A stretch of DNA of 43,875 nt. Source: Planctomycetaceae bacterium (GTDB lineage Bacteria > Planctomycetota > Planctomycetia > Pirellulales > Pirellulaceae). Of this stretch, positions 18,158-24,145 are shown one piece after another; position 1 is the stretch's first letter, and each line of letters begins with the position of its first letter. The stretch covers positions 1 through 43,875 of the forward strand of contig SKZY01000168.1 of assembly GCA_007127095.1 (NCBI GenBank), in the 5' to 3' direction. Under the pieces are notes generated by a model. It had not been told where the DNA came from. It made no database searches and worked only from the letters and a program-made list of their open reading frames with translations. The translations under genes were made by a program, and so were the position numbers.

Positions 18158-18952
18158 TCAGACCGAGACCGCTGCCTTGATCGCCGGATGGGGCCGGTAA
18201 TCGACCAGCTCAAAGTCTTCGAATGCGAACCCGTCGATCCGCTCCGGGGTCGTGGCGATCCGCATCGTCGGTAGGCTCCGAGGCGTTCGTGACAGTTGCA
18301 GTTCCGCTTGCTCGAAATGGTTGCGGTACAAATGCACGTCGCCGAAGGTGTGTACGAAATCGCCCGGACGCAGACCGGTCACCCGCGCCATCATCATGGT
18401 TAACAAGGCGTAACTGGCGATGTTGAACGGGACTCCTAAAAAATAATCCGCGCTCCGTTGGTAAAGCTGACAACTCAGCCGCCCAGCGGCGACGTAGAAC
18501 TGAAACAGCAGGTGACAGGGCGGCAACGCCATCCGATCGACGTCAGCCACATTCCAGGCCGACACGATCAATCGCCGCGAATTCGGGTTCGTGCGAATCT
18601 CTCGTTCGACCCACGCGATCTGGTCGATCGTCTCGCCGCTGACGGTCGGCCACGAACGCCACTGATGGCCGTAAACCGGCCCCAGGTTTCCCTCGGCATC
18701 AGCCCATTCGTCCCAAATCGTCACGCCGTGACGATTGAGCCAACCGACGTTGGTATCGCCACGAAGAAACCACAACAGCTCGATGATGATCGACCGCAGG
18801 TGCAGCTTCTTGGTCGTCAACAGCGGAAAGCCCTGCTCGAGATCGAACCGCAATTGACGGCCGAACAGACTCCGCGTCCCCGTGCCGGTCCGGTCATCGC
18901 GGTCGACGCCGGTTTCGATGATTTCGCGGAGCAGATTCAGATAGGATTCCAT
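18158..18952 (-). CDS. thyA: thymidylate synthase
   Basis: This 264-residue enzyme is exactly the length of E. coli ThyA. It methylates dUMP to dTMP using methylenetetrahydrofolate. The catalytic Cys146 lies in [13 protein letters not shown], as in E. coli. Other landmarks are [14 protein letters not shown] at 18-31, [11 protein letters not shown] at 58-68, [18 protein letters not shown], and HLYRNHFEQ near the C-terminus. No dihydrofolate reductase gene follows it. The neighbouring genes give no sign of a pyrimidine operon. Confidence 0.97.
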
Positions 18953-19041: not shown

Positions 19042-21435
19042 TCAAGCGCTGACCGACCGCCGGACGGGATTATCAGCGACGCGGCCAGAGAACGTCCAGT
19101 GACGATCGCTGGTCATCCGCAGATCAGCCGGATCGAAGCCGCAATCGGCGAACATTTTCCTCGCCTCGTCCAGCGTCAATGCCGCGAACAACGAATCGCG
19201 GAGCATCTGGCGGGCTGCCTCAGGCTCCGATGCCGCGTGGGCAGCTACCAGCGATTCAACGGCGGCGGCGGTCGATGGTCGAAATAGATCGCGGACAAAC
19301 AGTCGACCACCGGGCTTCAGCAACCGCTTAGCCGCTGCGACGGCGAGTACCGGATCGGGCAGGTGGTGGATCAACGAATTGCAGATCACCGTATCGGCAA
19401 TCGCGGGTTCGAACCCCGCCAATCGCTTGCAATCGGCTTGAACCAACTCGATCCGCCCCTTCAACGATTCAAGCTCCAGCCGTCGGTTTGCCAGGTCGAG
19501 CATTTCGGCACTGGCATCGATCGCCATCACGCGTACGTTTGTGACGCGGCGACATAACTCGATGGGAATCAACGCCGTGCCGGTGCCGAGATCGACGACA
19601 TCGCTCCCCAGGTCGCCCTCAGCCAACAAATCGTCGACGAATTGCCGGTTTACCGCCTCGTGATCCATCTGGTCGTACAGTTCCGCCTCCTCGCGGGTAT
19701 CGATCAATTCGGGTTCGAGCAGCCGAGCGTTGAGCGCGCCGGCCGGTGCCGAACGAATGCCGGTGACCGCCTGCGAATCGTCCGGACCGTCGGGCAAGCG
19801 TGGCGGAACCGGGAGCACGAATCCCCATAACAAAAGCAGGCCGGCGGAACCTCCGTAGCCGGCGGCATACTCCAGCGTGAGGTGACGGTAGTCGGTGGCG
19901 AGTATCCAATCGCCCCAGGACTCGGGCCCCATTGGTAAAAACAAACGGTTCTCCGCCAACGGCGAATGGATGACCCCGAACAGAGTCAACAGGCCGCAGC
20001 AACCGAGCACAATCGCAGCCAGGCGAAGTTGCCGATCGATGATCGCGGTCAACACCCAAGCCCACAACAAGCTTGTCAAGATGAAGCTGTTGGAGAGCAT
20101 CGTCAGCGTCGTTAACTGCTCCTTCAGACGCGGGTCGCCGAGACTGTCGAAGCCGAAACCGGAGGCGAGCGCTGCCGGGTCACCGAACAGCTGGTTCGGA
20201 AAAGACAATGCCAGGAACGCCAGCGCAGGGATACAGCCGAGCGCGACAGCCGGATAGTGCCGCCGCGGTGTCGCGGCAAAGCTCTGAGCGGTGATTTCCA
20301 AGCCGATGAAGACCAAAATCGGCAGTACCACCGGGATCGGTAGGTAGGCGTTGAACCATTCGAAATAGCCGACGATGCCGGCGGCACCGATGAACATCGC
20401 GGTGGCCAACGAGTAGGCGGCCCGACCGCCCATCGCTTTGTAGGCCGGGTGGCCGATGTAGGGCGTCGTTTGGATCACGCCACCGGACAGCCCGGCGACC
20501 AAAGTCGCTGCCCCTTCGATCCCGACGACCGACCCGGTGTCGTAATCGTCGCCAGCCGCAGCGGCCGATTCGGTGCAGTCGATCCCGCCGACAACCGTCA
20601 TCAGGGCGAACGGCAGCGCGATCGGAAAGTACGGGATCGCATCCTGAATTGCCCCCAGCCAACCGAACGACCAAGCCGCCAACCAATCGCTGGGCAACCA
20701 AGCCACCCCCGGCGGTTCGGGCATCCGGTAGCCGTCAAACCCCAAGGCGATCATCAGGTAGTAGACCGCACCGGCGACGATCAGGGCGCCGACCGTACCG
20801 GGTAGGCGCCCCGGCAACGACACCCGCCCGATCAACGTGGTCAAGACGATCACCAATGCCAACATACCCGGCAGCGGGTGGGCGAAGATTTCCAACATCG
20901 GCATGAAGCTGATCAAGACCAAGGCGATCGCCGCCAGCGAGCCGAGCAATCCCGCCCGCGGCACGGTAGCCCGGACTCGGTTGCAAACCGGAGCACAAAT
21001 CAGCTTGAACACGCCACTCAGTACCAAACACCAAATGCCGATGTGCCAGGTCCGCGTCGCCGCCTCCGTCACCTCCAACCCGAGCACGTCACGGCCGGCG
21101 ACAAACGACGGCCCCAGAATGAAAAACACCATCCCGAACAACGACGGGGTATCGATCCCCAGCGGCATCGCGGTGACATCGTCGCGGCCGGTCCGCTTCG
21201 CCAGCCGAAACGCCAAGGCAAAAAAGGCGAGGTCGCCGACCAAGACGCCGAGCGCCGTTCCCGGCACCATCGTCCGGATGATGAACTCACCCGGGAAGCC
21301 GAAGGCCGTCGACAGCAGCAGCACCAGCAATAACAGATTGGCGACATTGTCGAACATCAACCCGAAGAAGGCGTTGATGTCGCCAGGACGTGCCCAGCGG
21401 TATCGGTGGACCGGCGACGGGGGCATGGACCGCAA
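19042..21435 (-). CDS. NCS2/AzgA-like permease fused to a SAM-dependent methyltransferase
   Basis: This single open frame of about 797 residues has two unrelated parts. Residues 1 to about 545 are a permease with about 12 hydrophobic segments. DDVTAMPLGIDTPSLFGMVF, GGIDCTESAAAAGDDYDT and GGVIQTTPYIGHPAYKAMGG resemble the nucleobase-transporter (NCS2/AzgA) fold. After a polar linker, residues about 590-797 form a class I methyltransferase with motif I VVDLGTGTALIPIEL (about 613-627), the acidic motif II MAIDAS and motif IV NSLIHHLPDP. The start is best read as TTG at 21435, with GAGGAG 7 bases upstream; the ATG at 21426 lacks a well-placed site. No stop or frameshift lies between the parts. 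Substrate and methyl acceptor are unknown. Confidence 0.85.
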   Translation of the reverse strand: MRSMPPSPVHRYRWARPGDINAFFGLMFDNVANLLLLVLLLSTAFGFPGEFIIRTMVPGTALGVLVGDLAFFALAFRLAKRTGRDDVTAMPLGIDTPSLFGMVFFILGPSFVAGRDVLGLEVTEAATRTWHIGIWCLVLSGVFKLICAPVCNRVRATVPRAGLLGSLAAIALVLISFMPMLEIFAHPLPGMLALVIVLTTLIGRVSLPGRLPGTVGALIVAGAVYYLMIALGFDGYRMPEPPGVAWLPSDWLAAWSFGWLGAIQDAIPYFPIALPFALMTVVGGIDCTESAAAAGDDYDTGSVVGIEGAATLVAGLSGGVIQTTPYIGHPAYKAMGGRAAYSLATAMFIGAAGIVGYFEWFNAYLPIPVVLPILVFIGLEITAQSFAATPRRHYPAVALGCIPALAFLALSFPNQLFGDPAALASGFGFDSLGDPRLKEQLTTLTMLSNSFILTSLLWAWVLTAIIDRQLRLAAIVLGCCGLLTLFGVIHSPLAENRLFLPMGPESWGDWILATDYRHLTLEYAAGYGGSAGLLLLWGFVLPVPPRLPDGPDDSQAVTGIRSAPAGALNARLLEPELIDTREEAELYDQMDHEAVNRQFVDDLLAEGDLGSDVVDLGTGTALIPIELCRRVTNVRVMAIDASAEMLDLANRRLELESLKGRIELVQADCKRLAGFEPAIADTVICNSLIHHLPDPVLAVAAAKRLLKPGGRLFVRDLFRPSTAAAVESLVAAHAASEPEAARQMLRDSLFAALTLDEARKMFADCGFDPADLRMTSDRHWTFSGRVADNPVRRSVSA

Positions 21436-21584: not shown

Positions 21585-22469
21585 TCAGTCGGTCGGGAAA
21601 GCCGAAAACTCGACCTCGTCGAAACTGGATATCATCTGACCCGCTTCGGAGATCTTCTTCCGATCGAGATCGCTCAGCCGCCCCACGTAGAGGTGCTCGG
21701 CGCGGTACTCCCGCGTCTTCAATCCTCGCCGTACCTCCAACTTGATCTGCCGCGGCAGTGTCTTTTCGGCCGCCAAAAACTCCGCCAACGTCATCCGTGC
21801 GAATGGCGGCGACCCGACGTGGCGGGCAATGTTCAACCGACAGGCCCAGACCGTAAACGCGGCGTATTCGGCGGCTACTCCCTCATGCAGCGACGACTGG
21901 GTCGTGACGACATATTTGGTGTCACCAAACTCCAGCGTGTAGCGATCGCGAGTCCCGTCGGGGACGACTTTGGCGCCGATCCCCAGCGCCCGCTCAGCAC
22001 CCGATTCGATCGCTGCGGCCCGTACCTGAGCAGAAATCTGGATCAATGATTCGGTCGAAATCGAGGTCCGAACACGTTGGACTTTGTGCAGCAGGATGAT
22101 CCGGCTGCGTCCGGGATCGAAAATCGAGACCGTGGCTCCGGTCCCGACCGGCAAGTCGTAGACGACGCCCGCATCGAACAGCAGCAGATGCTGTGATTGC
22201 GGCTTGACCTGCGTCCCTTCGAACAGATCGGTCTCGACGCGGAACGTCAATGGCGACGCTGCCGCCGGGGCGACGTACTTGACCGCGGTCACTTCGTCGG
22301 CGCGAGCCATCGCGGCCGCACCACTGAAAAGGCCGAAACAGGTCGTCAAGAACCAACGGCGGCCAGCCAGCGAACGGTCTTCAACCGGTTGTCGGTCAAT
22401 CGCGACTCGAAGACCTCGCCGCGATCGGTGAAGAGATTCAGGGAATAATCGAGTGGGCACAGCAGACAT
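21585..22469 (-). CDS. exported hypothetical protein with Tat-like signal
   Basis: This 294-residue protein is of no family I recognise. The N-terminal region has a twin-arginine-like motif, GRRWFLTTCFGLFSG (Arg37-Arg38), with a hydrophobic stretch and a possible cleavage site after AMARA near residue 57. The mature part (about 235 residues) is soluble and rich in beta-type segments (HLLLFDAGVVYDLP, SRIILLHKVQRVRTS, RYTLEFGDTKYVVTT). I chose the ATG at 22469 with AGGAT 10 bases upstream; the frame is open further upstream, but that part is basic and overlaps nothing useful. It sits between the ketosynthase-like gene and the permease fusion on the same strand. Confidence 0.65.
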   Translation of the reverse strand: MSAVPTRLFPESLHRSRRGLRVAIDRQPVEDRSLAGRRWFLTTCFGLFSGAAAMARADEVTAVKYVAPAAASPLTFRVETDLFEGTQVKPQSQHLLLFDAGVVYDLPVGTGATVSIFDPGRSRIILLHKVQRVRTSISTESLIQISAQVRAAAIESGAERALGIGAKVVPDGTRDRYTLEFGDTKYVVTTQSSLHEGVAAEYAAFTVWACRLNIARHVGSPPFARMTLAEFLAAEKTLPRQIKLEVRRGLKTREYRAEHLYVGRLSDLDRKKISEAGQMISSFDEVEFSAFPTD

Positions 22470-22680
22470 AGCGATCAGCCGATCCTGGGACAGAAGCATT
22501 AGCCAACAGTACGACCAGCGCGGAATCGAGATCCGCGACCGGCGGCGACGTTTACCAGAAGCTAGGGCAGAGAATCGTCTCACGTCCAGTGCGAAAATCG
22601 CGACCCTCGCGGCGTTCGGAAAAGCGGTCCGAACGGTTTCGAATCGGCATCATCACCAGTCCGACAGATCGTCGCCAGGA

Positions 22681-24009
22681 CTACGCATCGCAAGCGGCGA
22701 TCTGGATCGCCGTCGCCTGCCCTTGCGGCGTGACGTTGACGCTGACAAAGCTGTCGCCCGCTGGCGTCCCCGGACCGGTCACGAGGTTGATCTCACAGGC
22801 CGGATCAGGCTGGTCGCAATTTCGGATCGGGAACAGTTCGCCGCCCAGGCAAAGCGTACTGGCGATGATCTCGACCATTCCGCCTCCGGCACCGAGATTG
22901 CCGAAATGCCCTTTCGCCGTGGTCACCGGGACCTGCGGACGGGCGTCCCCGAAACAGACCTGAATCGCCTCGGCTTCGGCCAGATCGCATTCGGGGGTAG
23001 CGAGGCCATGAGCGTTGACGTGGCCGATCGACTGCGGTCCGCGTTGCAGGGTCGCCATCCGCATCGCGTTGACCATCGCCCCCCGCAGCATCCCCGATCG
23101 CTCCGTCGGCGGTACGGCACTGCTACCGCCGCCGACGATCTCGGCCAGGATCGGTACGCCCCGCTTGCGGGCGTTGGCGAGCGTTTCGACGATCAACGCA
23201 CCGGCACCTTCGCCGAGCACCGATCCGCTTCGGCGGACATCGAACGGACGACACGACGACGCCATGTCGTCTTCGCTGGCCGGGCGCGGGAGCGTCGCTA
23301 ACTTCTCCTGCATCGCCGCGTGCAACGACCGGAAGGGCTGAATCCGCGACCCCGTCGAACCGACGACCATCACGTCGGCGTGACCACGCCGCAACGTCGA
23401 ACAGGCTTCCCAAAGCACTGCGGCCGGCGAGGCTTCGCGGAGTGTGATCGAGTTGTTCGGCCCGCGGAGATCGTTGAAGATCGCTACATGGCTGGCCGGC
23501 ATATTCGGCAAGTATTTCAACAGCCACAACGGATTGACCTGGTGCAATCCCTTAGTCGCCCAATCGCGAAAACAAAACTCGCCGTTCTCGTCTCGGCAAT
23601 TCTGAATCCCGGCGGCGAACTCTTCCGGCAAGGTCATGATGTAATCGCACCCGAAGAGCACTCCGGTCCGATCGGGATCGCGAGACTCGGGCGTCAGTTC
23701 GGCGTCGTGGATCGCCAATTGCGCCGCGGCGACCCCCATTTCGATCTCACGACACATCAGCTTGGAACTCTTGCGGATCGTCCGCTGCAACGGCTTGTCG
23801 AGCGGACCGTAATCCTCGATTTTGCCGGTGAAATCACGGACCTCCGCCCCATGGTCAACCGACAAAACCCCCGTCGGGACGCGGGTGAACTCGCCGATCC
23901 CGCTGCGGAATGACCGTAGCCCGTCGATCAACTGGTCCGGCGAACAACCGAGCGGGCTGACGACGCCCAGCCCGGTGATGACAATGCGGTCGGATTGGGA
24001 GTCGTTCAT
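22681..24009 (-). CDS. beta-ketoacyl-ACP synthase homologue without catalytic Cys
   Basis: This 442-residue protein is a FabF-type ketosynthase by overall sequence: RIVITGLGVVSPLG at 8-21, GEGAGALIVE at 267-276, and VNAHGLATPECDLAEAEAI (His334) near the C-terminal half. The active-site region reads GPNNSITLREASPAAVLWEA (183-202 approximately), so the Cys of the canonical TACAS motif is Glu192. The second His of the KS triad reads GN at 370-371, and the glycine-rich GFGG loop is replaced by SVNVTPQGQATAI. It is therefore unlikely to condense acyl chains like FabF and may be a chain-length-factor-like or non-condensing member. Start ATG at 24009; 24030 is possible. No ACP or other fatty-acid gene is nearby. 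Confidence 0.88.
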   Translation of the reverse strand: MNDSQSDRIVITGLGVVSPLGCSPDQLIDGLRSFRSGIGEFTRVPTGVLSVDHGAEVRDFTGKIEDYGPLDKPLQRTIRKSSKLMCREIEMGVAAAQLAIHDAELTPESRDPDRTGVLFGCDYIMTLPEEFAAGIQNCRDENGEFCFRDWATKGLHQVNPLWLLKYLPNMPASHVAIFNDLRGPNNSITLREASPAAVLWEACSTLRRGHADVMVVGSTGSRIQPFRSLHAAMQEKLATLPRPASEDDMASSCRPFDVRRSGSVLGEGAGALIVETLANARKRGVPILAEIVGGGSSAVPPTERSGMLRGAMVNAMRMATLQRGPQSIGHVNAHGLATPECDLAEAEAIQVCFGDARPQVPVTTAKGHFGNLGAGGGMVEIIASTLCLGGELFPIRNCDQPDPACEINLVTGPGTPAGDSFVSVNVTPQGQATAIQIAACDA

Positions 24010-24145
24010 CGATCGAAAAAACGGAGGCATCGAGCAAGGGAAACGGGGCGTGACGGTACCTCACCGCCCAGTCGCCTCGCAACGACCCAGTTTGCGCAAT
24101 CCAGACGGATCGGCAAGGCGTAGGGCGGTCGAAAATCGTCGCCGA

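What the first reader, a model, noticed from the sequence alone, without database searches (positions are those of the whole stretch)
19042..21435. Permease and methyltransferase fused in one polypeptide
Seen: one uninterrupted frame encodes a 12-helix permease resembling NCS2/AzgA nucleobase transporters, then a linker and a complete class I SAM methyltransferase (VVDLGTGTALIPIEL, NSLIHHLPDP). Known: NCS2 permeases are normally stand-alone, and methyltransferases are not a usual partner domain. Inferred: the enzyme may methylate the imported compound as it enters (vectorial modification), or methylate a regulator of the carrier. Permease motifs diverge from classical uracil/xanthine carriers, so the substrate may not be a nucleobase.
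Basis: partly seen in the sequence, partly recalled or inferred. Interest (0 to 1): 0.68.

Follow-up and report, generated by a model that had tools for sequence, protein, structure and literature searches.

The report
Base transporter fused to a methyltransferase
In one genus of planctomycete bacteria, two neighbouring genes, a probable nucleobase importer and a methyl-transferring enzyme, have merged into one protein, a real but modest event that hints the two work in the same nucleotide-related pathway.

Summary
The fusion is real. Window 19042-21426 (-) encodes 794 residues: a UraA-fold permease, a variable linker and a complete class I SAM methyltransferase (MT). All 5 sampled genomes of the genus carry it uninterrupted, with divergent linkers and no Met at the MT boundary. 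One MAG of another genus shows an apparently independent second fusion (at least 6 of 199 family genomes). Elsewhere the two are separate genes, adjacent in 11 of 35 relatives outside the genus, sometimes in frame with one stop between. The recurring module is an ECF sigma factor and membrane protein (divergent), then permease > MT > thymidylate synthase > DHFR. Permeases of other phyla sit beside nucleoside transporters; two distant relatives lie in xanthine/guanine catabolism operons, and the one aligned shares our TM10 motif. A purine-like cargo is likely. MT also occurs without the permease (10 of 35) and is not the genome's UbiE. Best reading: an operon fusion of co-regulated nucleotide-metabolism genes, giving a membrane-tethered cytosolic MT. 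Methylation of the incoming substrate is possible, unproven. No report of the fusion appeared in the open-access text searched. New variant of a known kind.

The parts
19042..21426 (-). Fused permease-methyltransferase ORF, 794 aa plus stop
19792..21426 (-). Permease part, residues 1-545: UraA-like fold over residues 9-384, then extra membrane segments; conserved TM3 TAMPLGxDTP, TM8 TESAxxAGD, TM10 TTPYIGHPAYKxMG in this family
19732..19791 (-). Linker, residues 546-565 (model under pLDDT 50 over 546-586); variable in length and sequence within the genus, no Met
19045..19731 (-). Class I SAM methyltransferase domain, residues 566-794; SAM motif VVDLGTGTA, NSxxHH, RDLxRP, C-terminal SDRHWT
18158..18952 (-). 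Thymidylate synthase gene next downstream on the same strand; recurrent partner of the MT
21585..22463 (-). Unassigned gene next upstream on the same strand (C10; a longer GTG start gives 21585-22583); homologues in two other loci of the genus, in the place where most permease loci of other genera have the divergent ECF sigma factor

Best explanation
It is an operon fusion. Ancestrally a divergent ECF sigma factor and its membrane partner faced an operon permease > methyltransferase > thymidylate synthase > DHFR. In this genus (and, it seems, once more elsewhere) the stop between the first two genes was lost and the MT lost its own start, giving one inner-membrane protein. The N-terminal UraA-fold carrier most likely imports a nucleobase-like ring compound, most probably a purine. 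Its C-terminus lies in the cytosol and tethers, by a flexible linker, an active MT that methylates a small molecule of nucleotide or pterin metabolism; the MT's target is not known and need not be the imported compound. The gain is fixed 1:1 expression and membrane placement of two enzymes of one regulated module. Shown: the fusion, its two apparent origins, the module, the folds (as predicted). Inferred: substrates, activity, topology, ancestral order, benefit.
For: Fused frame in 5 of 5 sampled genomes of the genus. Separate adjacent genes in 11 of 35 relatives outside the genus (hand sorting). Same-frame tandem genes with exactly one stop between them in 11 of the 33 loci that hold both halves on one strand (loci partly picked for this). 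The second fusion L150 groups with unfused congeners at support 0.999, apart from the genus clade, also 0.999. Module map: divergent ECF gene within 600 bp upstream of the permease in 41 of 51 permease loci, ThyA next after MT in 15 of 50 MT loci, the whole permease-MT-ThyA-DHFR run in 4 (loci partly picked for adjacency). UraA Z 21.8, UapA with xanthine Z 19.6. 14 of 49 scanned close same-strand neighbours of permeases outside the genus are CNT nucleoside transporters, plus one adenosine deaminase and one PnrA-type binding protein. Two relatives in xdhABC-permease-guaD operons; the one aligned shares TTxYIGHPAYKxMG and ESAxAAGD with ours, whereas two relatives without a purine operon read GHPGWK. 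MT motifs RDLxRP and SDRHWT invariant across 25 sequences.
Against: No biochemical evidence was found for either half. The permease lacks the classical NCS2 TM10 motif and has no PF00860 match. In the sister genera of the permease tree the permease and MT-ThyA-DHFR are apart, so the link is not obligatory. 21 genomes of family f8 match by the permease only. The window's own genus lacks the ECF gene upstream and its DHFR is on another contig. One relative permease lies in an AtzE/AtzH-type cluster, so the substrate may be another nitrogen ring; two others show no purine operon (one adenine phosphoribosyltransferase lies near the latter). 4 of 49 scanned neighbours are amino acid permeases. MT specificity cannot be read from the fold.
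Confidence: 0.6

Rival explanations
1. Vectorial methylation: the tethered MT methylates the imported compound at the cytosolic mouth, trapping or detoxifying it, as group translocation does by phosphorylation.
For: Repeated adjacency and two apparent fusions; cytosolic C-terminus inferred from helix order and charges; carbonic anhydrase-SulP fusions are a precedent in the same fold class (title seen in the reference list of PMC3924187).
Against: MT without a listed permease in 10 of 35 and apart in 8-10 of 35 genomes outside the genus, permease without MT in 1 of 35 and in 21 genomes of family f8. Where MT stands alone it still has thymidylate synthase next in 5 of 13 loci.
Confidence: 0.2
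2. Neutral fusion: two operon neighbours merged with no functional gain; each half works as before.
For: Neighbours often lie in the same frame one stop apart; linkers are unconserved; the fusion was seen in only 6 of 199 family genomes, a lower bound because the match list is cut.
Against: Kept intact in all 5 sampled genomes of the genus, which are 71-93% identical to each other in this protein.
Confidence: 0.16
3. The MT regulates the carrier, or a partner of it, by protein methylation.
For: Tethering would favour it; none specific.
Against: Structural neighbours are mostly small-molecule methyltransferases, which is weak evidence; MT present where the permease is absent.
Confidence: 0.03
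4. Sequencing or assembly error joining two genes.
For: The genome is a draft in 475 contigs; raw reads not available.
Against: Same fused frame in 5 of 5 genomes of the genus with divergent linkers and no Met at the MT boundary.
Confidence: 0.01

Closest known systems
NCS2/NAT permeases (UraA, UapA, SVCT1)
   Same: Fold: UraA Z 21.8 over 314 residues, UapA Z 19.6, SVCT1 Z about 19; two cyanobacterial plasmid relatives annotated 'NCS2 family permease' and Roseobacteraceae ones 'xanthine/uracil/vitamin C permease'; nucleoside and purine gene context
   Different: No PF00860 match in any of 35 family members; classical TM10 ENxGxxxxT[RK] replaced by TTPYIGHPAYKxMG; about two more membrane segments; MT fused
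Class I SAM methyltransferases of the UbiE/CpaM/DVU_1556 neighbourhood
   Same: SAM motif and fold; the first Foldseek row is yeast Coq5, a UbiE relative by my recall
   Different: Below the curated cut-off of each of the 25 NCBIfam families shown of 42; own hallmark SDRHWT and RDLxRP; the genome has a separate true UbiE
Carbonic anhydrase-SulP fusions (Felce and Saier 2004; title seen in a reference list)
   Same: Carrier of the same broad fold class fused to a soluble enzyme (details recalled, not checked)
   Different: Methyltransferase instead of carbonic anhydrase; NCS2-like instead of SulP carrier
Myxococcus MFS carrier Q1DA07 beside a SAM methyltransferase gene (passage of PMC3924187)
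   Same: Carrier and methyltransferase as neighbours; the authors suggest a drug modified by methylation for detoxification
   Different: MFS carrier and separate genes

Membership tests
NCS2 (PF00860, Xan_ur_permease) | UraA-type fold | tested here: met
   Predicted model: Z 21.8 to UraA 5xls, 314 residues, rmsd 3.1; SLC26/SulP and Bor1 members of the wider fold class follow at about 17.4-18
NCS2 (PF00860, Xan_ur_permease) | Profile match to PF00860 | tested here: not met
   0 of 35 members match at E <= 1 (HMMER filters drop weak matches); hhalign to three PF00860 proteins gives probability 55.8 only
NCS2 (PF00860, Xan_ur_permease) | TM10 signature ENxGxxxxT[RK] (motif recalled; present in the PF00860 protein shown) | tested here: not met
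   Aligned segment reads TTPYIGHPAYKAMGGR
NCS2 (PF00860, Xan_ur_permease) | Nucleobase transport | not testable with these tools
   Only gene context: CNT neighbours, purine operons of two distant relatives
AzgA-type NCS2 | Closer to AzgA than to UraA-type members | tested here: inconclusive
   hhalign 0.7 to one AzgA-like sequence whose label is my recall
Class I SAM methyltransferase | Rossmann fold with DxGxG motif and acidic residue after strand 2 | tested here: met
   PF08241 1.7e-18; D54, G56, D79 invariant in 25 of 25 sequences, G58 in 90% or more; Z 17-19 to class I MTs
UbiE/MenG | Score over the TIGR01934 cut-off 158.35 | tested here: not met
   53.4 bits; the genome's UbiE scores 246.7 on another contig

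The most novel reading that the evidence does not exclude
A carrier that methylates its cargo: the UraA-fold permease hands an incoming nucleobase-like compound to the tethered MT, which traps or detoxifies it as the methylated form, a methyl-based analogue of group translocation that is wired to thymidylate synthesis and, in related genera, to its own ECF sigma factor.
Probability: 0.15. Interest if true: 0.8.

Novelty: new variant of a known kind. Interest (0 to 1): 0.42.

Why it matters
Two apparently independent fusions of the same pair are Rosetta-stone evidence that an unassigned purine-type permease family and an unassigned, often thyA-linked methyltransferase act in one process. The methyltransferase is present in 32 of 35 sampled relatives outside the genus, so this is a concrete, testable lead on a widespread planctomycete enzyme and on what the ECF sigma factor beside it controls.

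Tried and rejected
Menaquinone methyltransferase (MenG/UbiE): rejected, a true UbiE lies elsewhere in the genome, although Foldseek's first row is Coq5. Sequencing artefact: rejected for the genus. Programmed read-through of the single stop in unfused loci: not pursued; in L120, L151 and L157 the MT has its own Met at or just after the stop. Fusion in G024, G093 and G131, suggested by long open-frame lengths: rejected, each has a stop between the halves. The labels FUSED for L124, L125 and L164 are script errors: those genes overlap in different frames. A long frame around the permease of G233 was checked last and is only upstream read-through with no MT. AzgA affinity: unsupported. Profile search of solved structures with the permease alignment: 0 matches at E <= 10. 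A first structure job was sent by oversight without an alignment and is useless (mean pLDDT 40.6). Alignment A3 seemed to place MT rows on the permease and was dropped. The MT substrate could not be narrowed by family scans. The hand sorting leaves 2 of 35 genomes (G018, G021) undecided at contig ends. No family absent from the list is claimed as excluded.

Paper searches showed no report of this fusion in their listings; they cover only open PMC text, most listed papers were unrelated, and I read passages of one paper only (PMC3924187).

Full report
Observation. The frame at 19042-21426 (-) is open for 794 codons from its likely ATG. Pfam and NCBIfam assign only the C-terminal class I methyltransferase. 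The own genome (475 contigs, 95.57% complete) has a single copy; its other 5 matches cover only the MT part at 27-32% identity. An alignment-based AlphaFold2 model has mean pLDDT 82.2, pTM 0.69 and a low-confidence stretch 546-586 between the two domains. Second-look structural alignment puts the permease first with UraA (Z 21.8, 314 residues), then UapA with xanthine (19.6) and SVCT1 (about 19), and the MT with many class I methyltransferases at Z 17-19. Plain Foldseek has Coq5 first and SVCT1 second, both at 4.7e-06.

The fusion is old within the genus. Of 40 genomes searched, 5 belong to the genus (the own genome among them) and all 5 carry the full-length frame; the one TGA reported for G002 is its terminal stop (compare). 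The 35 others, sorted by hand from the rows: 11 have permease and MT as adjacent same-strand genes; 8 have both, apart; 2 have MT plus only a distant permease paralogue; 10 have MT only; 1 has permease only; 1 has neither; 2 cannot be decided at contig ends. In 199 genomes of the family, 193 match at E <= 1e-35. Uninterrupted fusions among the listed rows are the 5 of the genus plus G366 (L150); the row list is cut, so 6 of 199 is a lower bound. I fetched every listed genome outside the genus whose permease row had an open frame of 750 or more (most, G024); apart from G366 none is fused. The 8 other near-full-length rows (G287, G305, G338, G294, G358, G311, G400, G330) have one or more stops between the halves. 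Among 119 genomes drawn from the phylum no fusion showed apart from the own genome, nor among 146 of the order apart from G000 and G003; 0 of 156 matching plasmid records cover 80% of the protein. In the named genome collection, 4 of the 80 loci kept (of 121 found) match nearly the full length; all four are titled Planctomycetaceae bacterium, and the three of them with short contigs have the contig lengths of G001, G002 and G004.

Origin. Of the 33 loci that hold both halves on one strand, 6 are fused and 11 have the MT in the permease's frame with exactly one stop between (L120, L151, L152, L153, L155, L156, L157, L158, L159, L163, L166); others overlap in another frame or lie further apart. 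Many were fetched because one search flagged them, so this is not a rate. In the genus the stop is gone and no Met stands at the MT boundary. For the closest pair (L116, L119) linker changes by codon position are 12, 8, 24 over 50 codons, against 38, 10, 149 over 545 in the permease. In three more distant pairs the third-position lean in the linker is weak or absent (22,12,22; 15,11,13; 13,10,21), where the linker alignment is also uncertain. So the linker is translated but under weak constraint at most. Trees of 56 permeases and 50 MTs give the genus clade support 0.999 in both, and place the L150 fusion with unfused congeners (0.999 with L190 and L191 for the permease, 0.991 with L190 for MT); several deeper nodes are poorly supported. 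In L190 the MT lies 4.65 kb from the permease, and L191 has none in its 14 kb. The second fusion rests on a single MAG.

Module. With reference proteins from the first 35 loci I mapped 64 loci. A divergent ECF sigma gene (one representative checked: Pfam Sigma70_r2 and r4) lies within 600 bp upstream of the permease in 41 of 51 permease loci, in 40 of them followed by a membrane protein with a trace of DUF1559 below cut-off (C2, one representative, E 0.027). None of the 5 loci of the window's genus has it (one, L116, has almost no upstream DNA); the unassigned gene C10 is there instead in 3. MT is followed by thymidylate synthase in 15 of 50 MT loci and then by DHFR in 8; these 15 span 11 genera by handle. 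The whole permease-MT-ThyA-DHFR run is in L123, L153, L155 and L195. The window has permease~MT then ThyA; its DHFR is on another contig. These loci were partly chosen for permease-MT adjacency, but L137-L149 were chosen for a stand-alone MT, and 5 of those 13 still have ThyA next. Against an obligate pair: 21 genomes of family f8 match by the permease only, and 38 of 146 genomes of the order match by neither at E <= 1e-35.

Permease substrate. The family is unassigned by Pfam and NCBIfam (35 members). Outside the genus the named collection gave 76 loci, nearly all from other phyla by title (L040 is titled Planctomicrobium). Their close same-strand neighbours number 52; I scanned 49 from 41 loci and left out 3 longer than 900 aa: 14 are CNT nucleoside transporters, 1 adenosine deaminase, 1 PnrA-type binding protein, 4 amino acid permeases, 4 PAP2 proteins, the rest singletons or unassigned, some of them likely spurious ORFs. 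Six plasmid-borne relatives at 31.5-33.7% identity were inspected out of 156 records with a match. Two (Roseobacteraceae) lie in xdhABC-permease-guaD operons. One lies beside AtzE- and AtzH-type genes. Two show no purine operon, though an adenine phosphoribosyltransferase lies near the Leptospira gene. One record is unannotated. The xdh-linked permease shares ESAxAAGD and TTxYIGHPAYKxMG with ours, while the two relatives without a purine operon read GHPGWK. A purine or similar ring is therefore the likeliest cargo, although the classical NCS2 motif is absent.

MT. In 25 aligned members D54, G56, D79, N125, H129, H130, RDLxRP and SDRHWT are invariant, so the enzyme is probably active. It is not UbiE. 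Its target is unknown; the recurring link with ThyA and DHFR points to nucleotide, folate or pterin metabolism, which is inference.

Verdict. Real, conserved, apparently twice-formed fusion; an ordinary operon-fusion mechanism; an unusual pair, not seen in the listings of the papers searched. Vectorial methylation stays open but is not required by the data.

Noticed in passing
L120-L129, L131, L133-L136, L150-L160, L162-L169, L190-L195, L198: A divergent ECF sigma factor, nearly always with a membrane partner carrying a weak DUF1559 trace, is the most constant neighbour of the permease in planctomycetes, but was not seen in the window's genus.
   Followed up: partly
L137, L139-L142, L193: The stand-alone methyltransferase sits directly before thymidylate synthase, and often DHFR, in genera where the permease is not next to it.
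   Followed up: partly
window 21585-22463: Unassigned gene C10 upstream of the fusion: no Pfam match at E <= 1, homologues in loci L117 and L118 of the same genus.
   Followed up: no
L205 (Paroceanicella plasmid pD4M1A): A distant permease relative, annotated 'regulator', lies with AtzE, AtzH-like, DUF4089 and cysteine hydrolase genes, possibly a carrier for an s-triazine or biuret-type compound.
   Followed up: no
window 22681-24030: A beta-ketoacyl-ACP synthase homologue well below the FabF cut-off (220.6 bits against 493.75), two genes upstream of the fusion.
   Followed up: no
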